The notes under the pieces were generated by a model. The model searched no databases, was not told the DNA's origin, and was given only the letters and a program-made list of their open reading frames with translations. Shown here one piece after another: positions 1-10,278 of a stretch of DNA of 32,393 nucleotides. This DNA comes from Victivallales bacterium (GTDB taxonomy: Bacteria > Verrucomicrobiota > Lentisphaeria > Oligosphaerales > Oligosphaeraceae): positions 1 to 32,393 of the forward strand of contig JAFRLI010000225.1 in the NCBI GenBank assembly GCA_017431255.1. Direction: 5' to 3'. Positions within the stretch are counted from its first letter, which is position 1, and each line of letters starts with the position of its first letter. The translations under genes were made by a program, and so were the position numbers.

Positions 1-1535
1 CACAACCCGAGGCGGTTGCCACACCAGTTGCACAATCCGAAGCGGTTGCCGCACCCGTCGCACAGCCCGAAGTGGTTGCCGCACCTGTTGCACAGCCCAG
101 AGTGGTTGCCGCGCCAGTTGCACAGCCCTCAGCGGTTGCCGCGCCCGTCGCACAGCCCGCAGTGGTTGCCGCGCCCGTTGCACAACCTACCGTAGCACAG
201 CCCGAAGTGGTTGCCGCGCCCGTCGCACAGCCTGCAATGGTTGAACAACCCGTGATTTCGCAGCCCACGCCCGTCGCACAGCCCGCAATTTTTGCAGCAC
301 CCGTCGCGCAGCCCGCAACGGTAGAACAACCCGCGATTTCGCAACCCGCGCCCACCGCACAGCCCGCGCCCGCAACCGAGCCCGCAGTGGTTGCCGCGCC
401 CGTTGCACAACCCGCCGTTGCACAACCCGCCGTTGCACAACCCACCGTGGCACAACCCGAAACGGTTGCCGCACCAGTCGCACAGCCAGAAGTGGTTGCC
501 GCGCACGTGGCACAGCCCGCGACAGTTGCACAGCCCGCGACAGTTGCACAGTCCGAAACGGTTGCCGCGCCCGCCGCACAACCCGCCATGGCGCAGCCAG
601 AAGTGGTTGTCGCACCCTCCGCACAGCCCGCAGTGGTTGCCGCTACCGTCGCACAGCCCGCGCCCATGGCACAACCCGCAGTGGTTGCCGCATCCGTCGC
701 ACAACCCGCAGTGGTTGCCGCATCCGTCGCACAACCCGAAGTGGTTGCCGCACCAGTCGCACAGCCCGCGCCCGTGGCACAGCCCGCCGTTGCACAACCC
801 GCCGTTGCACAACCCGCCGTTGCACAACCCACCGTGGCACAGCCCGAAGTGGTTGCTGCGCCCGCCGCACAGCCCGAAGTGGTTGCCGCATCCGTTGCAC
901 AGCCCGAAGTGGTTGCCGCACCAGTTGCACAGCCCACGCCTATAGAGAAACCTGAATTGGTTTTCAACGGCGAGACGCCGTCGGTACAGCCCAGCGGGAC
1001 GCCGTCGGTACAGCCCAGCGGGACGCCGTCAGTACAGCCCAGCGGGACGCCGTCGGTACAGACGGTTGAGATAGAGGAAAAGAAGGCGCGTCGTGTTGCA
1101 GAAACGGGGATGGCGGCGGTAGCGGCGGCGTCGGCGGTGCCAGGGGGAGCGGTTCCCGTTACGGGACCGATGGAAGTTCCTCAGACTGGTCCGACCGCAA
1201 GCGTTTTGAACCATGTGGAAGCGGCGACGGGAACGGAGATTTTCCTGGAAGCCGCGACAGCGGTTGCAGACACGATTCTGGTGTCGCCGCAGTTAATGCG
1301 TGGCGAAGGGGAGATTCTGGTGAAGTTGAAGCCAGAAGTCTTGAAGGGAACAACGATTCAGATTGTGTCGTCGGGCGATACGCTGTCCATTCATTTTGCC
1401 CCGACGGCTGCGGATGTCAGCGTTCTTTTGGAAAAGCACGCACCGCAACTTTCAGAATATTTGTCGTCGCACATCCATCGTTTCAAGATTTCGGTGGATG
1501 TCCGACGTAAGGATTTAGACGAGGGGAACGCGTGA
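1..1535 (+). CDS. sctP: Type III secretion needle-length regulator SctP (YscP/FliK-like), 5' partial
   Basis: The frame is open from base 3, so the true start lies left of the window. About 310 residues are a degenerate Pro/Ala/Val/Gln repeat (VVAAPVAQPA-type decamers mixed with AVAQP pentamers). An eight-residue PSVQPSGT-type repeat follows, then a linker, then a C-terminal domain from about base 1300. That domain (GEGEILVKLKPEVLKG, then a hydrophobic strand/helix pattern ending FKISVDVRR) matches the Flg_hook/FliK C-terminal substrate-switch domain. In T3SS the SctP N-terminal part acts as a molecular ruler for the needle and the C-terminal domain contacts SctU to switch substrates. Position directly upstream of sctQ-R-S fits the classical P-Q-R-S order. 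The stop overlaps the next ATG (ATGA at 1535), implying translational coupling. Identity rests on the C-terminal domain and context; the repeat itself is low complexity. Confidence 0.8.
   Translation, partial: QPEAVATPVAQSEAVAAPVAQPEVVAAPVAQPRVVAAPVAQPSAVAAPVAQPAVVAAPVAQPTVAQPEVVAAPVAQPAMVEQPVISQPTPVAQPAIFAAPVAQPATVEQPAISQPAPTAQPAPATEPAVVAAPVAQPAVAQPAVAQPTVAQPETVAAPVAQPEVVAAHVAQPATVAQPATVAQSETVAAPAAQPAMAQPEVVVAPSAQPAVVAATVAQPAPMAQPAVVAASVAQPAVVAASVAQPEVVAAPVAQPAPVAQPAVAQPAVAQPAVAQPTVAQPEVVAAPAAQPEVVAASVAQPEVVAAPVAQPTPIEKPELVFNGETPSVQPSGTPSVQPSGTPSVQPSGTPSVQTVEIEEKKARRVAETGMAAVAAASAVPGGAVPVTGPMEVPQTGPTASVLNHVEAATGTEIFLEAATAVADTILVSPQLMRGEGEILVKLKPEVLKGTTIQIVSSGDTLSIHFAPTAADVSVLLEKHAPQLSEYLSSHIHRFKISVDVRRKDLDEGNA
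3..950 (+). repeat. Degenerate 30-nt/15-nt tandem repeats inside sctP
   Basis: The coding repeat is built from 30-nt units of the form GTGGTTGCCGCGCCCGTCGC plus CAGCCCGNA, with blocks of 15-nt GCCGTTGCACAACCC-type units at about 410-450 and 780-835. Unit lengths are multiples of three, so gain or loss of units changes ruler length without a frameshift. Some neighbouring units are near-identical (for example around 680-740), suggesting recent unit duplication. The array is interrupted by diverged units near 240-330. Confidence 0.85.
975..1061 (+). repeat. 24-nt tandem repeat in sctP (TPSVQPSG units)
   Basis: Three complete units and a 15-nt partial fourth of ACGCCGTCGGTACAGC followed by CCAGCGGG run from 975 to 1061. 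They encode TPSVQPSG repeats and differ at only one base (GTCAGT at about 1030). Their near identity, compared with the more diverged 30-nt repeat upstream, suggests a young expansion. Confidence 0.85.
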
Positions 1536-1627: not shown

Positions 1628-1690
1628 TCGGAGTCCGGGAAGGCATGCCTGTTGAAAGCGGACGGGAATGCGCCCTCGGAGGAGTTCCAT

Positions 1691-2383
1691 ATGAAGATAC
1701 GATTTGGGAAGGAAGAGTGCGTGCTGGGTCTGGCACCATGTCCTGCCATGCCGGAGTTCAGCAAATTGCTGTCAATCCGCGAGCAAGTTCCGGAGCCAAT
1801 CCTGTTGGCGGTTTTGGAAGCGGAGGCAGGCACCCTGTTCCAAACTCTGGAAGACGCTGTGCGAATCGAGTTGAGCATCGCCGGACCGACCGACGTCGCG
1901 GGAACCGATCCCGTACCGTTCCGTCTGCTCCAGCAGGAGGACGGCAACGAATACCACTTCACCCTCTCCATGACCCCGCACATCCTTGCCACCCTCGGCA
2001 ATCTGGAACACCTGGATTTGACGGATCCCTCCATCGCAGGCATCTCCCTTGACGCCGAAATCGAACTCGCCGTCTTTGATCTGTCCCCGGATGAAGAGGC
2101 TGGCCTTGCCGTGGGGGACTGCCTGCTCCTGCCTGAACTCTCCGGCGAACACCCAGGACGCATTATCCTGCGCGGAAAAGGCGATCCCGAACGACTCCGC
2201 ATTCTGGCAGACACAACACGGCAAATCTCCTTCGCAGAATATGTCGCTGCAGACGGAACCCCACGCTGCTCCGCGGACGGCATCGACGCATTGCTGCTGA
2301 TGAAAGCGGGAACGCGTCGCGCCTCTGGACGTCGAGTGAAGTTGGGAGTTCAGAACGCAATGCAACTGGAGGCAATATGCTGA
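1691..2383 (+). CDS. sctQ: T3SS cytoplasmic ring (C-ring/sorting platform) protein SctQ, likely truncated
   Basis: The protein resembles SctQ/YscQ (FliM/FliN family). A helical N-terminal part (PEPILLAVLEAEAGTLFQTL) is followed by a beta-rich stretch and one SpoA-like surface-presentation domain (SLDAEIELAVFDLSPDEEAG, then a GDCLLLPEL motif). ATG 1691 was chosen because GGAGGAG lies 6 nt upstream. The frame also contains TTG 1652 and, beyond an in-frame TAA at 1625, the coupled ATG 1535, which I think was the ancestral start. Only one SpoA-like domain is visible, against two in many SctQ proteins. The gene lies between sctP and sctR and its end overlaps the sctR start. SctQ normally forms the cytoplasmic sorting platform that engages the ATPase and substrates. 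Confidence 0.65.
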   Translation: MKIRFGKEECVLGLAPCPAMPEFSKLLSIREQVPEPILLAVLEAEAGTLFQTLEDAVRIELSIAGPTDVAGTDPVPFRLLQQEDGNEYHFTLSMTPHILATLGNLEHLDLTDPSIAGISLDAEIELAVFDLSPDEEAGLAVGDCLLLPELSGEHPGRIILRGKGDPERLRILADTTRQISFAEYVAADGTPRCSADGIDALLLMKAGTRRASGRRVKLGVQNAMQLEAIC

Positions 2384-3057
2384 ATGCTGACCCATTTGCG
2401 CTAATTGTCCTATTCATTGGACTGTCGCTGTTGCCGTTTTTGGCGATGATTGCAACGAGTTACCTGAAGATTGTCGTTGTAATGTCGTTGATTCGCAACG
2501 CACTCGGCATCCAGTCCATTCCGCCCAACATGGTCATCAATGCCATGGCGTTGATTCTGACGTTCTACATCATGGCACCTCTCATGAACCAAAGTTGGGA
2601 TATTCTACAGCAGGGACTCAAGGACAACAAGCCCGAAGTCATCTACCAGACTGACATCGCCGCACGCGCCGCCGAACCCTTCCGAGGTTTCCTCAAACGA
2701 AACACCGCTGAAAGCCACATCGTCTTCTTCGCCAGCACCGCCGAACGCCTCTGGGCAAAAACCGAGGTCGACGCCCAGGGCAATCCCATCAAGGTCCCCG
2801 CCGTCGTCGATCCCGACAGTTTCTACATCCTCGTCCCCAGTTTCTGCGTCTCCGAATTGACCCGCGCCTTCCAAATCGGTTTCCTCGTCTACCTTCCCTT
2901 TATCGCGATTGACATCATCATCTCGAACATCCTCCTGGCAATGGGTATGATGATGGTCTCCCCCGTGACCATCTCCCTCCCATTCAAGTTGCTCTTGTTC
3001 GTGATGGTGAATGGGTGGGCGCGCCTCATCCAAGGCCTCGTTCAAAGTTACGTGTAG
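2377..3057 (+). CDS. sctR: T3SS export gate protein SctR
   Basis: A 226-residue FliP/YscR family protein of full family length. Diagnostic segments are the early TSYLKIVVVMSLIRNALG motif and the following PPNMVINAMALILTFYI, plus a C-terminal pair of hydrophobic helices around DIIISNILLAMGMMMVSP. Four or so transmembrane segments flank a periplasmic loop (about residues 70-150). SctR forms the core of the export gate in the inner membrane with SctS and SctT. The ATG at 2377 overlaps the sctQ stop, so the two are translationally coupled; sctS starts 4 nt after this stop. Confidence 0.95.
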   Translation: MLNADPFALIVLFIGLSLLPFLAMIATSYLKIVVVMSLIRNALGIQSIPPNMVINAMALILTFYIMAPLMNQSWDILQQGLKDNKPEVIYQTDIAARAAEPFRGFLKRNTAESHIVFFASTAERLWAKTEVDAQGNPIKVPAVVDPDSFYILVPSFCVSELTRAFQIGFLVYLPFIAIDIIISNILLAMGMMMVSPVTISLPFKLLLFVMVNGWARLIQGLVQSYV

Positions 3058-3061
3058 CATC

Positions 3062-3331
3062 ATGTCCGAAGCACAACTGCTAGATTACGCGCAGACGACG
3101 CTGATTCTCGTCCTGAAACTGTCGCTATTGCCGATTGTGGTGGCGACCGTTATCGGGTTGCTTGTGTCGTTGTTACAGGCGTTGACGCAGATTCAGGAGC
3201 AGACCCTGGGCTTCGCCGTCAAACTCATCACCATTTCCATCACAATCATGCTGGCAGCCAACTGGATGGGATCCCAGTTACTGGTGTTCACCCAGGAAAT
3301 CTTTCTGAACATCCCATTCGTTTCCAGATAG
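3062..3331 (+). CDS. sctS: T3SS export gate protein SctS
   Basis: An 89-residue FliQ/YscS family protein with two transmembrane hairpin helices (LILVLKLSLLPIVVATVIGL and FAVKLITISITIMLAANWMG). The family signature LLQALTQIQEQTL lies between them. It begins at ATG 3062, four bases after sctR; an upstream in-frame GTG inside sctR is ignored because family length and the MSEAQLLDYA N-terminus fit this start. SctS packs around SctR in the export gate. Confidence 0.95.
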   Translation: MSEAQLLDYAQTTLILVLKLSLLPIVVATVIGLLVSLLQALTQIQEQTLGFAVKLITISITIMLAANWMGSQLLVFTQEIFLNIPFVSR

Positions 3332-3364: not shown

Positions 3365-3853
3365 ATGACCATTGAAGACTACTACCGCACCATTGCCCCC
3401 AAATTGACCAACTACCTGATTGGCTCTGGCAGTACCTATGCAAACGCTTGCGATATCGTCCAAGAAACCTTCCTCCGCCTCTGGAATATGCGCGAACGGC
3501 TCCAGGACGACCCCTCCCAAGTCAGCGGACTCATCTACACCATCGCCCGCAACATCCGCATCAATATGATTCGCCACGACTCCCACGAAACCCTTCAGGA
3601 GGAAATCCGTGACGAAGACGCTGGCCCCGCCGCAGAAGCACCCTCTCCCAGCGATATGGAATACCTCCGGGGACGCATCAATTCCGCCCTCGAACAACTC
3701 CCGCCACTCATCCGGGAAGCCTTCGTCCTCTTCGAAATCTCCGACCTCTCCATCCGCGAAATCGCACAGATCACGGGCGTCACCGAAAACCTCGTCAAGG
3801 TCCGCATCCACCGCGCCAAAGAAAAACTACGCCCACTCCTGGCCGATCTGTAA
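3365..3853 (+). CDS. ECF-type RNA polymerase sigma factor
   Basis: A 162-residue sigma-70 family protein with only regions 2 and 4, the layout of extracytoplasmic-function sigma factors. Region 2 covers about residues 8-75 (DIVQETFLRLWNM, then YTIARNIRINMIR). Region 4 covers about residues 108-160 (LEQLPPLIREAFVLFEISDL, then helix-turn-helix IREIAQITGVTENLVKVRIH). It lies between sctS and further T3SS genes on the same strand, so control of T3SS transcription is a natural inference. Precedents are Pseudomonas HrpL and Bordetella BtrS, both ECF sigma factors controlling T3SS. No separate anti-sigma gene is recognisable in the window; the STAS/phosphatase pair downstream may feed into its control. 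Confidence 0.9.
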   Translation: MTIEDYYRTIAPKLTNYLIGSGSTYANACDIVQETFLRLWNMRERLQDDPSQVSGLIYTIARNIRINMIRHDSHETLQEEIRDEDAGPAAEAPSPSDMEYLRGRINSALEQLPPLIREAFVLFEISDLSIREIAQITGVTENLVKVRIHRAKEKLRPLLADL

Positions 3854-3933
3854 GAAAAAAACGAACGCCGAGGTGCACCGCGAGGCCGGTTGGACGATCG
3901 TTTTGCAATTTCTTCTTAAAAAACACGAAACTG

Positions 3934-3959
3934 TGTAACCTTTTTTTAGTTGGAGCGTA
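3934..3959 (+). promoter_or_regulatory. Candidate ECF-sigma promoter upstream of the small T3SS-locus gene
   Basis: TGTAACC (3934-3940) and CGTA (3956-3959) are separated by 15 nt including a T-tract. This matches the general ECF promoter pattern of an AAC-containing -35 and a CGT-containing -10. It sits in the only substantial gap of the T3SS operon (3854-3995), directly after the ECF sigma gene and about 35 nt before the next start codon. The match is by eye from one site. Confidence 0.45.
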
Positions 3960-3995
3960 TTCAAGGTAAAGAAACCAACAAAAGAGGTGATGACC

Positions 3996-4265
3996 ATGAA
4001 CATGACGCCCATCAACAGAAACACTTTCTCGCCGGCGGTCGCCCCCCAAGATACGAGCGTTCCTGTTACCCCACAGGAATCCCAGCAGAAGACGAACAGC
4101 CCGCTGAAGGTAACGGTTCGGGACCAACCCGCAAATGTCACCTTCCAAGATGAGATTTCCACGGAAATCGAATTGGATGCCACCAACCGCAACGACCATC
4201 TGGGAGACTTGATTCGCCAGGCCCTGAGTTATTCCTGCCCCCCGATGCCAACGTTCCCTAAATAG
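3996..4265 (+). CDS. Small protein of unknown function in the T3SS locus
   Basis: An 89-residue protein that I do not recognise. ATG 3996 is chosen because the strong Shine-Dalgarno GAGGTGA ends 5 nt upstream; GTG 3987 and ATG 3990 overlap that site. The first half is polar, rich in Pro/Ser/Thr/Gln and probably disordered. The second half has an acidic stretch (DEISTEIELDATNRN) and an amphipathic helix ending in LGDLIRQALSYSCPPMPTF. It has no signal peptide or membrane segment. Its position, size, disordered N-terminus and likely separate promoter suit a secreted T3SS component (needle, inner rod or early substrate) or a chaperone partner, but no family match supports a specific role. Confidence 0.65.
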   Translation: MNMTPINRNTFSPAVAPQDTSVPVTPQESQQKTNSPLKVTVRDQPANVTFQDEISTEIELDATNRNDHLGDLIRQALSYSCPPMPTFPK

Positions 4266-4297
4266 GAGAACAACTTCTGGACCTGAACGCACAAAAC

Positions 4298-4972
4298 TTG
4301 ACGAACCCGACTGCGGCGGTATCCGACGCAGGCGGGTCTTTGCGTTCAGAAGCAGTTCCCGTGGAGGGAGTTGCAAGCCAGGAAATGACCATCGAAAACG
4401 GGTTTGTTCGCGTGGAAGACGGGGAATGGCTCGTGTCGCTTGGAATGCCAACGGCAGTCCAAGGGGAAACCCGGGCAAGCACAATGCCTCCCCCGCAGGA
4501 GGGTCTTTCCTTCTGGAAGCGTTTCTTTGCCCCGGACCGGCATCGCCTCTCGTTCGTCACCCTGAAGGGAAAAATGTGGTGCGCAGTGAAAGCACGCCCG
4601 TTTCTGACACGGATTGACCTCGGGGAAACCGTCACGATCGTCACGGACCGCTTGCTGCTGGCACCATCCAGTTCGCGCAAGGGAGGACGGATGATTCGCA
4701 TCATCCCATTTTCCTTCCGGGACGCCATCTGCGTCACCGAATGCCAGATGGGATGGGCCGTGGTGGCGACGGAATCACGCACCACGCGAATCGTCGTCCA
4801 AGACGGCGGTACCCTCTCCGTAAAACCTTCCAGTGTCGTGGCTTGGACTGGGAATTCCCCAACGGGATTCTGCCCCCGCCTCCGCCTTCGCGACCTCTTC
4901 CTGCCTCGAATGCCGAAATGCCTGTCGCTGACATTCCACGGTCCCTGCATTGTCTGGATGGAGGGAGGGTAA
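4298..4972 (+). CDS. AIM24-like (DUF124-type) beta-rich protein in the T3SS locus
   Basis: A roughly 224-residue, mostly beta-strand protein. Its C-terminal end (GGTLSVKPSSVVAWTGNSP, then LSLTFHGPCIVWMEGG) resembles the last strands of AIM24/TRAP-like beta-sandwich proteins. There is no signal peptide or clear membrane helix, although FWKRFF at about residues 71-76 is strongly basic-aromatic. The start is uncertain: no ATG or GTG is available, TTG 4298 has no ribosome-binding site, while CTG 4277 lies 8 nt after AGGAG and would add seven residues. It is wedged between the small unknown gene and sctT and ends 3 nt before sctT, so it is very likely co-transcribed with the T3SS genes. Its role there is unknown. 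Confidence 0.55.
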   Translation: MTNPTAAVSDAGGSLRSEAVPVEGVASQEMTIENGFVRVEDGEWLVSLGMPTAVQGETRASTMPPPQEGLSFWKRFFAPDRHRLSFVTLKGKMWCAVKARPFLTRIDLGETVTIVTDRLLLAPSSSRKGGRMIRIIPFSFRDAICVTECQMGWAVVATESRTTRIVVQDGGTLSVKPSSVVAWTGNSPTGFCPRLRLRDLFLPRMPKCLSLTFHGPCIVWMEGG

Positions 4973-4975
4973 CGC

Positions 4976-5755
4976 ATGAACTACTCGGATTTCCATAAAA
5001 TCGTCCTGGCGTTCGTGCTTTCCGCAATTCGCATCAGCGCGGCGATGGCGATCTGCCCCGCAACCTCCAGCACGATGATTACAGGGCTGGCACGCCGCGT
5101 GGCAGCCCTGGCGTTTGCCGCCGTGCTGGTGCCCCGCGTTATCGCACAGATGGAAGAACTCTCGGCGTTCCTGTTCTGCGCCGTGGCGTTGAAGGAGGCT
5201 CTTGTGGGATTCCTCATCGGGTTCTTTGCCTCGATTCCGTTCTGGGTCGCGGAAAACACAGGAAACTTCATTGACAACCAGCGCGGCGCCACCATGGGTG
5301 AAGTCTACTCCCCACTGTCAGGTGCACAGGTCTCCACAACTGGCATCCTGTTCACGCAGATCGTTTCCACCATCTTTTACATCAGCGGCGCCATCCTCCT
5401 CTTTCTCGGTGCCATCTATGCCAGTTACGACTTCATCCCCCTCTTCGGAAAACAACTCGCCGCCGCTCCTGACGCCCACGCGTTCGCACTCGATACCCTC
5501 GACAATATGATGCGCACCACCTACATCATCTCCGCACCCATCATCATCCTGATGTTCCTGGCCACCATCGGACTCGGATTCGTCAACCGCACCGCTCCCC
5601 AATTGAACGTGTTTTTCCTCTCGATGCCCGTGAAGTCCGCGCTCGGCATCGCCTTCCTCATCGTGTACATAGAATACATTCTGGATATGCTGATGTACGA
5701 CTCCCAATCCGCCTTGCTGGGACCGCTCCTCCGCATCTTCGACGTCCAAACTTAA
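4976..5755 (+). CDS. sctT: T3SS export gate protein SctT
   Basis: A 259-residue FliR/YscT family protein with about six hydrophobic segments. Typical sections are VLSAIRISAAMAICPATSS near the N-terminus, KEALVGFLIGFFASIPFW, the ENTGNFIDNQRGATMG loop, and a C-terminal PVKSALGIAFLIVYIEYI. SctT completes the SctR/S/T export gate at the inner membrane. The start at 4976 lies three bases after the preceding stop. In classical clusters sctT is next to sctS and sctU; here regulatory and unknown genes have been inserted on both sides. Confidence 0.95.
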   Translation: MNYSDFHKIVLAFVLSAIRISAAMAICPATSSTMITGLARRVAALAFAAVLVPRVIAQMEELSAFLFCAVALKEALVGFLIGFFASIPFWVAENTGNFIDNQRGATMGEVYSPLSGAQVSTTGILFTQIVSTIFYISGAILLFLGAIYASYDFIPLFGKQLAAAPDAHAFALDTLDNMMRTTYIISAPIIILMFLATIGLGFVNRTAPQLNVFFLSMPVKSALGIAFLIVYIEYILDMLMYDSQSALLGPLLRIFDVQT

Positions 5756-5781
5756 TCCCCCATAACATAGGAGCTTCCATC

Positions 5782-6072
5782 ATGGAAATCAAAAAAACTC
5801 TCGAAGGCACAAAACTCACCGTCACTGTGGAAGGCAACTTGGACACCACGACCTCCCCACAACTCGAAAATGAACTCAAACTGAACGGGATTACCGAACT
5901 CATCCTCGACATCGGCGGCGTCACCTACGTCTCCTCCGCAGGTCTCCGCGTCTTCCTGACTGCCTGCAAGACCATGACCGCGCAAGGCACCATGACCATC
6001 CGAAACGCTCAACCCGCCGTCCTTGACATCTTCCAAATCACCGGATTCTCCAACATCTTCCATCTGGAATAA
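5782..6072 (+). CDS. STAS-domain anti-sigma factor antagonist (RsbV/BtrV-like)
   Basis: A 96-residue single STAS domain. The early GNLDTTTSPQLENEL and the core LILDIGGVTYVSSAGLRVF are characteristic; Ser52 aligns with the phosphorylated serine of RsbV/SpoIIAA. Such proteins bind an anti-sigma kinase when unphosphorylated and are switched by a serine kinase and a PP2C phosphatase. The next gene, 3 nt downstream, encodes both activities on one chain, so the pair forms a complete switch apart from the final target. AGGAG 8 nt before ATG 5782 is a good ribosome-binding site. Confidence 0.92.
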   Translation: MEIKKTLEGTKLTVTVEGNLDTTTSPQLENELKLNGITELILDIGGVTYVSSAGLRVFLTACKTMTAQGTMTIRNAQPAVLDIFQITGFSNIFHLE

Positions 6073-6075
6073 ACG

Positions 6076-8151
6076 ATGAAAGACACCAATAAATATCGCA
6101 TCGATATCCTCTGTGCCGCTTGTGTCGCAACGATTTTGACGTTTATGATCGTCGATATCGTCGAATCACGACAGGCCAAAGACCGCATCAAAACTATCAT
6201 GGAACGGGCGCGGTCGGATTTCAGAATCGAAATATTGAACAGCATGGACCGCGTGCTGACCTATGTTGCCCTGTGCATTCGCTCCCGCGCGGGCAGCGTC
6301 TCCAACGTCACTCAGGAGATGGTGGCCCAGTTCAAGAAAGAATATCAACTCGATGAAATCAACTTCGCCGACAGAAACGGCGTCATTCAGGCAACGACCC
6401 ACAAGGAACAACTCCACTATTATATGGGAACGGACCCCGATCCCAAAAAAGCGGCTGGCTTCCTTTGTCTCATCAACGACACCGTCTGGTACACCCAGCC
6501 ACCGCGAATCACCGTCAATGCCGACGACGCCTACCGCAAGTTCATCGGCATTCGCATGGACGGCGGATACCTTCAGGTCGGATTCGACTTCAAACGCCTC
6601 TCCGAAGACCTCTCCCGACTCCTTTCCGACATCGCACTCGAGTGGCATGTCAGCGGGAAAGGCTTCTTTATTCTTGCCGATGAGGAATCCGGCGAAGTCA
6701 TCTCGGATGGACGCTACTCGGTCTACCAGGTCATCCGCCACCTTTCGATGAAACGAACGCTTTGGACTCTGGGATTCTCCAAGGAAATCCTCAATTATCC
6801 CTCGAATTATGTCTTTGAAGCGAACGTCTTCGGCACGCCCAGTTTTTGCACCTCCTTCCCCATTCCCGAATCGGGTCACCGCGTCTGCATGATTGTCCCT
6901 CAAAGCGAGGTGATTCACGCCAAAAATGTCTCCGTTTGGACAACGATGGGAGTCTTGATTGTCATTTTCGCATTGGTCACCATGATTGCCTTGCGTCTGG
7001 TTACGTTGCAGGAACGCGCGGAGATAGAACGACAGGCCGAAGAGGAACGGCGCAACAAGGACCTCGCACTGGCCTCCTCCATCCAGGCCGCCGCACTCCC
7101 CAACCACTTCCCGCCCTTCCCCCAAATCGCCGACTGCGTCGACACCTATGCCATGATGCATCCCGCGAGGGAGGTCGGCGGCGACTTCTACGACTTCTAT
7201 TTCATCTCTAAGTCCCGCGTCGCCTTCCTCGTCGCCGACGTCTCCGGCAAGGGCATTCCCGGCGCAATGTTCATGATGCGCGCCAAGACGACTTTGAACG
7301 ACCTCCTTACCAGCAACGGCGACAACTTGGGACGTGCCGTCGCTTCCGTCAACGAACGTCTTGCAGAAGGCAATGACGCAAATATGTTCGTGACGGCCTG
7401 GGTGGGCGTTCTGGATGTGGATACCGGACGCCTGGAATATGTCAACTGCGGGCACAATCCCCCCATTCTTCAACATGTGAACGGGAAATACGAGTGGATG
7501 CGCACGGTGTCAGGTCTTCCGCTCGGAGTGTTCGGCGGGACAAATTACCAGCATAAGGTCCTGCAACTCCATCCAGGGGACAAATTGTTCCTGTACACGG
7601 ACGGCGTCACCGAGGCCCAATCCCATGATGGCTTCTACGGCGAGGAACGGTTGCTGGAGAAAATCTCCACCTTCACCGGCAATTCCAAGGCCACCTGCAA
7701 TCTCATCTCCCAGGACATCACCGCCTTCGCCGAGAATGTCCCGCAGGCGGACGACATCACAGTGCTCGATTTCCAGTTCCACGGCGTTCGCCGTGTCTTC
7801 CCGTGCAACTCGGAAGGTATGTGCGCCGCCGAAGAGTTCCTCTACGATTTGGACGTGGATCCCAGGCTCTCCATCGTGGTCGATGAAATCCTCTCCAACG
7901 TCGTACGCTGCTCTGGTTCTCCTACTTTTGAAATGACATTCCTGCGGCACGGTTCCCACAAGAACCTCGTCATCGCGGATCAGGGACACCCCTTCGATCC
8001 GCTGTCGCTCCCCGACCCCGATGTCAACGCCCCTCTGGAGGCGCGCAAGGTGGGCGGGCTCGGCATCTTCATGGTGAAGCAACTGGCGGAGCATGTTTCC
8101 TATCAGCGGGACGGCGAACGCAACGTGCTGACGGTTCAGATAAAGGTGTAG
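6076..8151 (+). CDS. Membrane sensor with PP2C (RsbU/SpoIIE-type) phosphatase and RsbW-like kinase domains
   Basis: A 691-residue protein. An N-terminal transmembrane helix (about residues 9-28), an extracytoplasmic sensor region, and a second helix (about 285-305) lead into a short coiled linker of charged residues. The PP2C domain (about 340-560) has REVGGDFYDF, VADVSGKGIPGAMFM, NCGHNPP, YTDGVTEAQ and ADDITVLDF, so the metal-binding aspartates are present. The C-terminal HATPase domain (about 575-691) has the N-box (VDEILSNVV), G1 (IADQGHPFDP) and G2 (GGLGIFMVKQLAEHV). Both opposing activities of a partner-switching module are thus fused, acting on the STAS protein just upstream. The sensor region is not an obvious known fold. 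It starts 3 nt after the STAS gene and ends one base before sctU, so it is part of the T3SS operon. Confidence 0.92.
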   Translation: MKDTNKYRIDILCAACVATILTFMIVDIVESRQAKDRIKTIMERARSDFRIEILNSMDRVLTYVALCIRSRAGSVSNVTQEMVAQFKKEYQLDEINFADRNGVIQATTHKEQLHYYMGTDPDPKKAAGFLCLINDTVWYTQPPRITVNADDAYRKFIGIRMDGGYLQVGFDFKRLSEDLSRLLSDIALEWHVSGKGFFILADEESGEVISDGRYSVYQVIRHLSMKRTLWTLGFSKEILNYPSNYVFEANVFGTPSFCTSFPIPESGHRVCMIVPQSEVIHAKNVSVWTTMGVLIVIFALVTMIALRLVTLQERAEIERQAEEERRNKDLALASSIQAAALPNHFPPFPQIADCVDTYAMMHPAREVGGDFYDFYFISKSRVAFLVADVSGKGIPGAMFMMRAKTTLNDLLTSNGDNLGRAVASVNERLAEGNDANMFVTAWVGVLDVDTGRLEYVNCGHNPPILQHVNGKYEWMRTVSGLPLGVFGGTNYQHKVLQLHPGDKLFLYTDGVTEAQSHDGFYGEERLLEKISTFTGNSKATCNLISQDITAFAENVPQADDITVLDFQFHGVRRVFPCNSEGMCAAEEFLYDLDVDPRLSIVVDEILSNVVRCSGSPTFEMTFLRHGSHKNLVIADQGHPFDPLSLPDPDVNAPLEARKVGGLGIFMVKQLAEHVSYQRDGERNVLTVQIKV

Positions 8152-8152
8152 T

Positions 8153-9244
8153 ATGGCGGAATCTTCAGGCGAAAAGACAGAAATGCCGACCGCGAAGCGT
8201 CTGCGCGACGCCCGCGAGAAAGGGCAGGTCTGCTCCTCCAAGGACGTGGTCTCCACCGCGCTCCTGATCGTCTTGATGTACCTGACCGCCATCCTCGCCA
8301 CCGTGCTGGTGGATGATGTGGCAGACCTCATCACCTTCGTGGGAAACAACACCGCGATGGACCCCTGGCACGCCATCCACATCGGGGGAATCAACGCCGT
8401 CTGGATTATCTGCAAGCACTCGTTCATCTTTGCCGCCGTGGCGGCATTTGTCGGCGTGGCGGCGCATGTCGTCCAGATTGGTTTTCTGTTCACGCTGGAA
8501 CCCATCAAGCCCGACATGAACAAGTTGAATCCCGCCGAAGCCTTCAAGCGCATTTTTTCCATGAAGAACGTGTTTGAATTTCTCAAGAATTGCGTGAAGG
8601 TGACCTTTCTGAGTTATCTCATCTGGAAACTGATTGTCGTTTCCATTCCCGAACTGCTCCCACTTTGCTACGGAACCCTTTCGGACCTCATGCCCTGCCT
8701 CGCCGTCATTCTGAAACGCCTCGCAGGCTACACGGCCTTCGGCTATGTCGTCATTGCCGCCGTAGACTTTTTCTTCCAGCAGAAAAACTTCACCAAGCAG
8801 ATGATGATGACCAAAGACGAGGTCAAGCGCGAGTACAAGGAAATGGAAGGTTCCCAGGAAGTCAAACAGGCACAGCAGAAGTTCCGACAGGAAATCCTCA
8901 ACGGACCCAACCCCGTTACCGCCACGAAAAAAGCCACGGTCGTTGTCACGAACCCCACCCACATCGCCGTCGGAATCGAGTACAAACCAGAAGAATCCCC
9001 GCTCCCGAAAGTCGTCGTCGCAGGAACCGACTATGTCGCGGCCATCATTCGACGGACCGCCATGGAGGAAGGAATCCCCATCATGGAGAACGTCCCCCTC
9101 GCACGACGCCTTTACGCCCAGGTCGAGGTCGAGCACTACATCCCTGTCGAACTCGTCGAACCCGTCGTCGAAGTCCTCAAATGGGTGAAATCTCTCGACC
9201 AGGCTCGCAAGGAAGACGAAGAACTCGACGCCATCGAACTGTAA
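8153..9244 (+). CDS. sctU: T3SS export apparatus switch protein SctU (autocleaving)
   Basis: A 363-residue FlhB/YscU family protein. The N-terminus has the family motif GEKTEMPTAKRLRDAREKGQ, then four hydrophobic segments to about residue 215. The cytoplasmic domain carries the autocleavage site NPTH at residues 267-270 (within VVVTNPTHIAVGIEY), followed by PVVVAGTDYVA-type and ENVPLARRLY motifs. Cleavage between Asn and Pro is needed for the change of substrate specificity, in which SctP takes part. It is the last T3SS gene in this window. Two imperfect 18-nt repeats begin at its stop codon, and the next gene converges from the other strand. Confidence 0.96.
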   Translation: MAESSGEKTEMPTAKRLRDAREKGQVCSSKDVVSTALLIVLMYLTAILATVLVDDVADLITFVGNNTAMDPWHAIHIGGINAVWIICKHSFIFAAVAAFVGVAAHVVQIGFLFTLEPIKPDMNKLNPAEAFKRIFSMKNVFEFLKNCVKVTFLSYLIWKLIVVSIPELLPLCYGTLSDLMPCLAVILKRLAGYTAFGYVVIAAVDFFFQQKNFTKQMMMTKDEVKREYKEMEGSQEVKQAQQKFRQEILNGPNPVTATKKATVVVTNPTHIAVGIEYKPEESPLPKVVVAGTDYVAAIIRRTAMEEGIPIMENVPLARRLYAQVEVEHYIPVELVEPVVEVLKWVKSLDQARKEDEELDAIEL

Positions 9245-9317: not shown

Positions 9318-10007
9318 CTACCATCCCAGGACTTCTGCGACGTGCGGGAGGCTGGGCTTGATAAGTTGCTTGATGGCGGTCGCGTATTCGCGTATTTCGA
9401 CCTGTGCGTGAGGACTATCGCGAAGTTCAAGGAACTTGATAAGGTTTCCCAGGTCGACGGTGCCCCAGAAGGTGGTCATCATATTCTGCGGGAGGACACC
9501 GCGAGCCTGTTCACGGCAGACGCCTGCGTCGAGGAGTTTCTCGTAGGCAGCGAAGGCAGCGGCGTTCTGTTCCCGAATGATGGCCTTGCAGGCTTCCTGG
9601 TCGATTTTGTCTGAAGCCTTGGAAGCCTGACGGTCGCTTTCCGATTGTTCGCGCAGTTCTGCGGGCACGAAAAACTCGAGGTCTTCCTGGGTATAGCGGC
9701 GGGAAATTTCGTTGTAACTCCAGGTGCGGTGGCGGTGCCACTGGGAGCGCACGAAGAGCGGGCAGTGCACCAGGAACGTGAACACCACGTGCTCCAGCGG
9801 ACTGGTGTGATGGTTCTCGATGAGGTACTTCACGAGCACGACATCGCGTTGGTCCATCTCTTTCTTGAGTTTTCCAAAGGAAACGCGCGCGGCGTTCACG
9901 ACCGTGGTTTCCGTACCCATCTGATCGACGAGTCCAATCCACCCCTGACCATCCAGAACCATTACGTGGTTGGGCGGCGGGACATTGACATTCTCGCTGG
10001 ATGCCAT
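9318..10007 (-). CDS. thyX: Flavin-dependent thymidylate synthase ThyX
   Basis: A 229-residue ThyX. The family signature RHRxxSxNExSxRY is complete (RHRTWSYNEISRRY, residues 92-105). The enzyme makes dTMP from dUMP using methylenetetrahydrofolate and FAD/NADPH. ATG at 10007 was chosen because AGGAG lies 8 nt upstream; a further in-frame start upstream would run into the spacer after the ACP gene. It is the last gene of a ketosynthase-ACP-thyX run on the minus strand with a 25-nt gap to the ACP stop. No ThyA is visible in the window. Confidence 0.95.
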   Translation of the reverse strand: MASSENVNVPPPNHVMVLDGQGWIGLVDQMGTETTVVNAARVSFGKLKKEMDQRDVVLVKYLIENHHTSPLEHVVFTFLVHCPLFVRSQWHRHRTWSYNEISRRYTQEDLEFFVPAELREQSESDRQASKASDKIDQEACKAIIREQNAAAFAAYEKLLDAGVCREQARGVLPQNMMTTFWGTVDLGNLIKFLELRDSPHAQVEIREYATAIKQLIKPSLPHVAEVLGW

Positions 10008-10032
10008 ATCGTGTGCTCCTGGCTTTTTTATT

Positions 10033-10278
10033 TTATTTGGAGGAAAGGAATGGTTCAAGATAGTCCACGCAACCCTTCATAGTGGCAAACTTGGGATAGT
10101 CCGCCTCAGGGACTTCCACCCCGTACTGCTTGCGCAGTTCCATAATGACATCCAGAAAATCCATCGATTCCAACTTGCCCTTGAGGTTTTCCTCCATTTC
10201 CAGGCTTCCCCAGTCCACATCTTCGACAATGTCATTCAGGATGTCAACCATTGCGCTGTGGATTTCTTCTCGAGTCAT
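10033..10278 (-). CDS. Acyl carrier protein
   Basis: An 81-residue acidic helical protein with the carrier-protein pattern. Ser38 in KLESMDFLDVIMEL is the predicted 4'-phosphopantetheine attachment site; the canonical motif is DSL/MD, so Asp is replaced by Glu here. AGGAG 7 nt before the ATG supports the start. It follows a ketosynthase gene after a 45-nt gap, so it probably carries that enzyme's acyl substrates. Whether this is the housekeeping fatty-acid ACP or a specialised carrier cannot be decided from sequence alone; the atypical motif and isolation from other fab genes favour a specialised role. Confidence 0.88.
   Translation of the reverse strand: MTREEIHSAMVDILNDIVEDVDWGSLEMEENLKGKLESMDFLDVIMELRKQYGVEVPEADYPKFATMKGCVDYLEPFLSSK

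What the first reader, a model, noticed from the sequence alone, without database searches (positions are those of the whole stretch)
3365..8151. T3SS operon with built-in ECF sigma factor and partner-switching module
An ECF sigma, a STAS antagonist and a PP2C/HATPase protein are interleaved with sctR-S-T-U. In Bordetella, BtrS (ECF sigma) and BtrU/V/W control T3SS expression and secretion; Chlamydiae also have Rsb-type modules. Here the elements are embedded between export-gate genes, suggesting that envelope signals are coupled to secretion. No anti-sigma gene is visible, so the switch's final target is open: sigma, a missing anti-sigma or a secretion component.
Basis: partly seen in the sequence, partly recalled or inferred. 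Interest (0 to 1): 0.65.

Follow-up and report, generated by a model that had tools for sequence, protein, structure and literature searches.

The report
Sigma factor and switch inside injectisome operon
In uncultured gut bacteria of the Kiritimatiellae, the genes for a protein-injection machine carry their own transcription switch, whose DNA target was found in front of candidate injected proteins, plus a membrane sensor pair and an overlooked small partner protein that may be the sigma factor's brake.

Summary
In detail: an ECF sigma gene, a STAS gene and a membrane PP2C-HATPase gene are interleaved with sctR-S-T-U. The layout recurs in independent genomes: sctS-ECF in 8 loci and sctT-STAS-PP2C in 3 further genomes. 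The lineage is Kiritimatiellae, not Lentisphaerota. The two regulators have different histories.

(1) The ECF sigma belongs to the T3SS. It lies beside sct genes in 20 of 26 relatives. A promoter box, GTAACCTT-N13-YGTA, lies in front of orf92, translocator-type genes, CesT chaperones and large unknown ORFs. The box numbers 99 in 12 ECF-ortholog genomes; in a class-wide control it numbers 43 in 193 other genomes.

It is small, mostly disordered, adjacent to the ECF in 20 of 26 loci, and the best anti-sigma candidate.

(3) The STAS/PP2C-HATPase pair is a widespread family module, also present in genomes without this T3SS. It joined T3SS loci several times; its target is unknown.

It works like Bordetella Btr control (ECF, secreted anti-sigma, partner switch) but is not a member: kinase and phosphatase are fused here. 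All functions are inferred from sequence.

The parts
3..1535 (+). SctP/FliK-like protein (needle-length/switch region), cut by the contig start; repeat-rich N-terminus
   Evidence: position before sctQ-R and homology to the same gene in relatives; no family scan was run, so the name is inferred
1652..2383 (+). putative sctQ (C-ring); coding start may be 1748
   Evidence: no Pfam hit; 30-37% homologs directly before sctR in relatives; name inferred from position
2377..3057 (+). sctR
   Evidence: TIGR01102 244.9 bits, cut-off 208.6
3062..3331 (+). sctS
   Evidence: TIGR01403 99.5 bits, cut-off 76.5
3365..3853 (+). ECF sigma factor, inferred master regulator of T3SS substrate genes
   Evidence: Pfam Sigma70_r2 and r4_2; orthologs inside T3SS loci
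3934..3962 (+). ECF-type promoter TGTAAC-N16-CGTA (GTAACCTT-N13-CGTATTC) in front of orf92
   Evidence: conserved sequence and exact spacing across relatives
3987..4265 (+). orf92: small partner of the ECF, candidate anti-sigma (possibly exported)
   Evidence: adjacent to the ECF in 20 of 26 loci; conserved C-terminal R-D-D-x-L-G-x-L-V-x-x-A-F-x-L-P-x-P-x-M-P-x-F; residues 1-60 without predicted structure, helix 71-80
4298..4972 (+). orf224: conserved T3SS-linked protein of unknown function (start may be 4385)
   Evidence: in 14 of 29 family genomes: all 12 with SctU plus two more; in family relatives it lies in the sctV cluster; AIM24 match below cut-off
4976..5755 (+). sctT
   Evidence: TIGR01401 213 bits, cut-off 163.05
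5782..6072 (+). STAS-only protein with the phospho-acceptor motif SSAGL at residue 51
   Evidence: Pfam STAS 5.5e-15, TIGR00377 over cut-off
6076..8151 (+). membrane sensor with PP2C phosphatase and RsbW-like HATPase domain in one chain
   Evidence: SpoIIE 2.2e-47 and HATPase_c_2 5.9e-15; TM 11-29 and 293-311; catalytic motifs invariant in 20 homologs
8153..9244 (+). sctU
   Evidence: TIGR01404 381.6 bits, cut-off 358

Best explanation
This is the export-gate operon of a Kiritimatiellae injectisome carrying two regulatory layers. Layer 1: the ECF sigma directs RNA polymerase to a promoter GTAACCTT-N13-YGTA (AAC-N16-YGTA) in front of orf92, translocator-type genes, CesT-type chaperones and large proteins that look like secreted substrates, so it is the T3SS substrate-regulon sigma, comparable in role to Bordetella BtrS or Pseudomonas HrpL. 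orf92 is itself behind such a promoter and is the best candidate for the sigma's negative partner; by analogy with Bordetella BtrA it may be exported through the T3SS, which would link machine activity to transcription. Layer 2: a membrane sensor with phosphatase and kinase domains in one chain sets the phosphorylation state of the STAS protein, which then acts on an unknown target (a secretion component, orf92 or something outside the locus). Shown here: gene order and its conservation, intact catalytic motifs, the promoter box and its link to the ECF and to substrate-type genes. Inferred: that this ECF reads the box, the anti-sigma role and export of orf92, the sensing, and any effect of STAS on secretion.
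For: ECF orthologs lie beside sct genes in 20 of 26 Kiritimatiellae loci. The box has one spacing: N13 26 times, N14 twice, N8-12 and N15-20 never. It occurs 99 times in 12 ECF-ortholog genomes (reversed-pattern control 18) and 0 times in 7 family genomes without the ortholog (control 10). Across the class it occurs 23 times in the 5 ECF-ortholog genomes and 43 times in the other 193. 58 of 72 boxes lie 15-100 nt before an ATG opening an ORF of at least 80 aa, against 33% of random positions. Downstream genes are orf92, translocator-type genes, a CesT chaperone (PF05932 6.2e-7) and ORFs of 300-1300 aa with no Pfam family over cut-off among those scanned. In the order, orf92 was found convincingly only in the five genomes that have the ECF ortholog. 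In Gammaproteobacteria (L216, L217) the small ORF directly after the ECF ranked 2nd and 3rd of 2741 ORFs with the orf92 C-terminal model. Bordetella precedent: PMC7498569.
Against: No binding, transcription or secretion was measured. That the ECF itself reads the box rests on co-occurrence. orf92 has no similarity to a known anti-sigma family, and in G199-G201 it lies away from the ECF. It could instead be a first secreted substrate or a chaperone-like protein. The cross-phylum motif matches are individually weak (E 0.0037-0.15). The STAS/PP2C pair occurs without T3SS or ECF in related genomes, so its role in secretion may be only its operon position.
Confidence: 0.7

Rival explanations
1. One integrated switch: the STAS protein and the HATPase domain control the ECF sigma directly, with the HATPase as its anti-sigma, as in RsbW-sigmaB.
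For: The genes share one operon in the window and in part in G199-G201, and the HATPase motifs are intact.
Against: The STAS/PP2C-HATPase pair occurs in genomes with no ECF ortholog and no SctU, such as G010, G016 and G018. In G216 the ECF is in the T3SS locus but the pair is elsewhere. RsbW-type proteins are known for sigmaB/sigmaF-type sigmas, not ECF (own knowledge). ECF orthologs have a closer partner, orf92.
Confidence: 0.12
2. orf92 is not a regulator but the first ECF-driven secreted substrate (effector, rod or plug), and the ECF has no dedicated anti-sigma, like HrpL.
For: orf92 has a substrate-like disordered N-terminus, lies behind an ECF box as the candidate effectors do, and has no predicted membrane segment or known anti-sigma domain.
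Against: Adjacency to the ECF over many genera and in different T3SS arrangements, single copy, a conserved short C-terminal motif rather than a variable effector domain, and a similar motif beside ECF orthologs in another phylum.
Confidence: 0.35
3. The STAS/PP2C pair has no role in secretion; it serves a general envelope response and was placed in the operon by chance rearrangement.
For: Free-standing orthologs with other neighbours in most genomes; the tree needs at least four changes of the T3SS-linked label.
Against: Tightly packed placement next to sctT is kept in four genomes despite 52-53% PP2C identity. Other T3SS loci hold differently built STAS/HATPase/PP2C sets next to sctV (G006, G012), and in G206/G207 the pair closes an ECF-orf92-large ORF-chaperone array. 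Repeated association argues for function.
Confidence: 0.25

Closest known systems
Bordetella btr/bsc T3SS control: BtrS (ECF), BtrA/BspR (secreted anti-sigma), BtrU/V/W
   Same: ECF sigma for T3SS genes and unlinked effectors, a partner gene beside the ECF gene, and PP2C, STAS and HATPase functions tied to the T3SS (PMC7498569)
   Different: Here PP2C and HATPase are one membrane protein; genes lie between sctS-T and T-U; the PP2C/STAS pair is of separate origin from the ECF; orf92 homology to BtrA was not tested; no BvgAS-type input was seen in the array
HrpL regulon of Pseudomonas syringae
   Same: T3SS ECF sigma driving T3SS and effector genes (role from the abstracts of PMC5263251 and PMC3879358)
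   Different: Different box (GTAACCTT-N13-YGTA here; hrp box from own knowledge GGAACC-N15/16-CCAC); a conserved small partner accompanies the sigma; far phylum
RsbU/RsbV/RsbW partner-switching modules
   Same: PP2C, STAS with Ser acceptor and RsbW-like HATPase with intact motifs
   Different: Kinase and phosphatase fused behind a membrane sensor; no sigmaB-type sigma in the operon
HsbR-HsbA of Pseudomonas aeruginosa (STAS linked to FlgM/RpoS control)
   Same: STAS-based partner switch reported to regulate RpoS (PMC6482189, abstract and search only); that one HsbR chain holds both kinase and phosphatase is own knowledge
   Different: Membrane sensor rather than response regulator; T3SS injectisome locus and ECF sigma

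Membership tests
Non-flagellar T3SS export gate | SctR, SctS, SctT and SctU over curated non-flagellar cut-offs, flagellar models below | tested here: met
   TIGR01102, TIGR01403, TIGR01401 and TIGR01404 over cut-off; fliP, fliQ, fliR and flhB below
ECF sigma factor | Sigma70 region 2 and region 4 in a protein of about 160-200 aa, no region 3 | tested here: met
   r2 at 7-72, r4_2 at 104-155 of 162 aa; TIGR02937 over cut-off
ECF sigma factor | promoters with an AAC-type -35 and a CGT-type -10 at fixed spacing | tested here: met
   binding itself not testable here
ECF sigma factor | cognate anti-sigma encoded nearby | tested here: inconclusive
   orf92 adjacent in 20 of 26 loci but no known anti-sigma family
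Bordetella Btr system | separate PP2C (BtrU) and HATPase (BtrW) proteins | tested here: not met
   one fused chain in the window and its closest relatives
Bordetella Btr system | anti-sigma exported by the T3SS (BtrA) | not testable with these tools
   export and binding of orf92 need experiments; sequence relation to BtrA not tested
Bordetella Btr system | ECF controls T3SS translocator and effector genes | tested here: inconclusive
   box before translocator-type genes, chaperones and large ORFs; transcription not measured
Rsb partner-switching module | STAS with Ser/Thr acceptor, HATPase with N box, PP2C with metal-binding Asp motifs | tested here: met
   SSAGL; DEILSN, DQG, GGLG; GGDFYD, ADVSGKG, TDG, ADD
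Rsb partner-switching module | a sigmaB/sigmaF-type sigma as final target | tested here: inconclusive
   none in the operon; the rest of the genome was not searched for one
Known small or zinc-finger anti-sigma families (NepR, FlgM and the like) | match to a curated model | tested here: not met
   orf92 and its G005 homolog have no Pfam hit even at E 10; orf92 has no NCBIfam hit at 0.1

The most novel reading that the evidence does not exclude
orf92 founds a new family of small, exported anti-sigma factors. It pairs with one ECF lineage in Kiritimatiellae and in Succinivibrionaceae, and uses T3SS export as the signal that releases the sigma to express the substrate regulon; in the window clade a fused kinase-phosphatase sensor and STAS protein gate the same machine.
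Probability: 0.35. Interest if true: 0.78.

Novelty: new variant of a known kind. Interest (0 to 1): 0.62.

Why it matters
No paper found in the library describes T3SS regulation in Kiritimatiellae. The promoter box gives a direct handle on the substrates of an uncultured injectisome: candidate effectors, chaperones and translocators can be listed from sequence alone. Rumen T3SS genes correlate with methane yield in sheep, and most could not be assigned to known bacteria (PMC5549432); rumen Kiritimatiellae are now a testable source. The repeated, independent joining of ECF and partner-switch modules to T3SS loci in distant phyla suggests that coupling secretion to transcription is a recurrent solution.

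Tried and rejected
orf224 as a known family: AIM24 match below cut-off, two homologs without Pfam hit, and a five-sequence AlphaFold model of no use (pLDDT 31); not interpreted. G006 gene after sctU as another ECF: by its sequence it is a membrane protein instead. Strict box in the own sctC-V contig: GTAACCTTTTTTT at L179:414 lacks the -10, so no claim is made that the ECF drives the structural operon. c35 (the ~93 aa gene after the different ECF in G001/G024/G058/G059) as an orf92 homolog: it was not among the matches of the C-terminal model. Chimeric assembly: rejected, since the same order occurs in independent genomes. A longest-ORF gene caller misled by antisense ORFs was replaced by a codon-scored one.
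Full report
WHAT IS THERE. The window is one whole contig (G000:C256) of a draft genome of 3.54 Mb in 352 contigs. Its first 9.2 kb carry, all on the + strand: an sctP-like gene cut by the contig end, a putative sctQ, sctR, sctS, an ECF sigma gene, orf92, orf224, sctT, a STAS gene, a PP2C-HATPase gene and sctU. SctR, S, T and U exceed the non-flagellar NCBIfam cut-offs and the flagellar models do not. From sctR to sctU most gaps are a few bases to 33 bases; the exception is the 133 bases between ECF and orf92, which hold a promoter. The gene pointing the other way after sctU (9318-10058) begins a stretch with no T3SS gene recognised. The own sctV cluster is on another contig, G000:C337: sctC, sctW, a SycN-type chaperone, an SctX-like protein, sctV and sctD.

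IS THE ORDER REAL AND CONSERVED. sctS directly followed by the ECF is seen in the window and in L194, L195, L196, L197, L208, L211 and L213; in L208, L211 and L213 orf224, sctT and sctU follow. The other half, orf224-sctT-STAS-PP2C, recurs in G199, G200 and G201, with sctU next in G200 and G201 (the G199 contig ends in between), at 52-53% identity for the PP2C protein and 62-70% for STAS. In other genera the ECF sits after sctU (G005, G022, G015, L202, L203, L205, L207, L209, L210) or before the sctC-sctV cluster (L199, L206). By my count 20 of 26 Kiritimatiellae ECF orthologs lie beside T3SS genes on the piece examined. A more distant ECF (c36; Pfam regions 2 and 4 in the G024 copy) follows sctU in G001, G024, G058 and G059. 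So an ECF at the T3SS is common in this family; its exact slot moves. G012, G020 and G006 showed none beside sctU.

THE MISSED PARTNER. orf92 (92 aa) lies between the ECF and orf224. It matches no Pfam model even at E 10. With an alignment model it is found convincingly in exactly the five genomes of the order that have the ECF ortholog, one copy each, beside the ECF, and in the wider set it is adjacent to the ECF in 20 of 26 loci by my count. In G199-G201 it lies just before a large ORF that precedes orf224. Conserved is a short C-terminal stretch, R-D-D-A-L-G-x-L-V-x-x-A-F-N-L-P-P-P-x-M-P-x-F; the first 60 residues have no predicted structure and a helix covers 71-80. In two Gammaproteobacterial loci with an ECF ortholog of 46-49% identity (L216, L217) the small ORF directly after the ECF carries a related motif and ranked 2nd and 3rd of 2741 ORFs (E 0.11-0.15, so only suggestive). 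The four such genomes (L215-L218) have SctU over the cut-off.

THE PROMOTER BOX. TGTAACCTTTT, about 11 bases, then [CT]GTAnnC stands in front of orf92 in the window (3935) and in G005, G022 and G015, and in front of the ECF itself in G002. In the wider set it precedes orf92 in most loci and also translocator-type operons in L211, L213, L268 and L269. In G022 and G015 the -35 part overlaps the end of the ECF coding sequence, so part of that conservation could be coding; in the window, G005 and G002 it is not coding. The spacing is fixed: N13 26 times, N14 twice, none for N8-12 and N15-20. Genome-wide the strict pattern occurs 4 times in the own genome, 23 in G200, 30 in G201 and 99 times over 12 ECF-ortholog genomes, with 18 for the reversed pattern; it occurs 0 times (reversed 10) in seven family genomes without the ortholog. 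The broader control is less clean but agrees: 43 in the other 193 genomes of the class, 0.22 per genome, against 4.6 per genome in the five ECF-ortholog genomes of that set; ECF orthologs were not searched in all of those 193. 58 of 72 boxes have an ATG with an ORF of at least 80 aa within 15-100 nt, against 33% at random positions. What follows the boxes: ORFs of 300-1300 aa, several from repeated families, of which none of the seven scanned had a Pfam match over cut-off; proteins of about 150 aa, of which the one scanned is a CesT chaperone over the Pfam cut-off; and orf92. That the large proteins are T3SS effectors is inferred from box, chaperone neighbours and N-terminal appearance only. 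The pattern was derived from some of the same loci, so the whole-genome counts, not the loci, are the independent test.

THE PARTNER SWITCH. The PP2C protein has predicted membrane segments at 11-29 and 293-311, phosphatase motifs GGDFYD, ADVSGKG, TDG and ADD, and kinase motifs DEILSN, DQG and GGLG, whose key residues are invariant over 20 homologs; STAS has SSAGL. Thus kinase and phosphatase for the STAS serine can be in one chain. In relatives this pair is mostly free-standing and it is present in genomes with neither SctU nor the ECF ortholog. In the tree the window groups with G199, G200, G201 and the free-standing G216 pair (100/99), and the T3SS-linked label needs at least four changes. 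G006 and G012 carry separate STAS and HATPase genes next to sctV, and in G206/G207 the pair closes an array sctU-ECF-orf92-large ORF-chaperone. So partner switches joined T3SS loci several times.

MECHANISM. I favour two layers: the ECF as substrate-regulon sigma with orf92 as candidate negative, perhaps exported, partner; and the sensor/STAS pair as a post-translational switch of unknown target. Bordetella offers the precedent for both layers: BtrS activates T3SS genes, the T3SS-exported BtrA counteracts it, and BtrU/W/V control secretion by an unknown mechanism (PMC7498569; a CesT chaperone is needed for BtrA secretion according to the title of PMC10732220). Likelihoods: ECF reads the box 0.85; orf92 is a negative partner 0.5; it is exported 0.4; the STAS pair influences secretion or substrate expression 0.5. 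These are judgements.

NOVELTY. Each kind of part is known; the combination, its placement in the export-gate operon, the fused kinase-phosphatase sensor, the orf92 family and the box-defined regulon in this phylum were not found in the papers searched. Hence a new variant of a known kind.

Noticed in passing
L215-L218 (Succinivibrionaceae/Aeromonadales MAGs): ECF orthologs of 46-49% identity with a similar box and a 97-109 aa ORF after them; that ORF also ends in a LSDDALDGVCAAG-like stretch resembling a double-glycine leader. SctU there is only 38% identical to the window's, so the ECF is the better conserved part.
   Followed up: partly
L219, 7977-14317: A related ECF lies directly before HlyD-like and peptidase-ABC-transporter-like genes (NHLM/PCAT type, by eye), so this ECF lineage may also serve a type I export system.
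   Followed up: no
window 4298-4972; L147, L148, L150, L151, L154, L155: orf224 is present in every family genome with SctU and in G056 and G019, in the sctV cluster in the family relatives; a conserved T3SS-linked protein of unknown function.
   Followed up: partly
G200 and G201, 23 and 30 boxes (L337-L351 for G200): Large multi-copy protein families behind ECF boxes with recurring 'MFGG..IP..V..AM...DY.KGKPLTARRI' segments: candidate T3SS substrates of rumen Kiritimatiellae.
   Followed up: partly
G000:C11:3723, G000:C180:5856, G000:C286:18715: The other three strict boxes of the window's own genome; two lie before large ORFs (525 aa and over 1378 aa), one near a contig end.
   Followed up: partly
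G006:C36 (L055) and G012:C4 (L154): Separate STAS and RsbW-like HATPase genes (with PP2C in G006) embedded just before sctV: a second, differently built partner switch in T3SS clusters of the same family.
   Followed up: partly
L276, 361-4799: Two PP2C-HATPase fusion genes in tandem after one STAS gene.
   Followed up: no
window 3-1535: The sctP-like gene has a long A-x-P-V-A-Q-P repeat region at the contig start, which may be why the assembly broke there.
   Followed up: no
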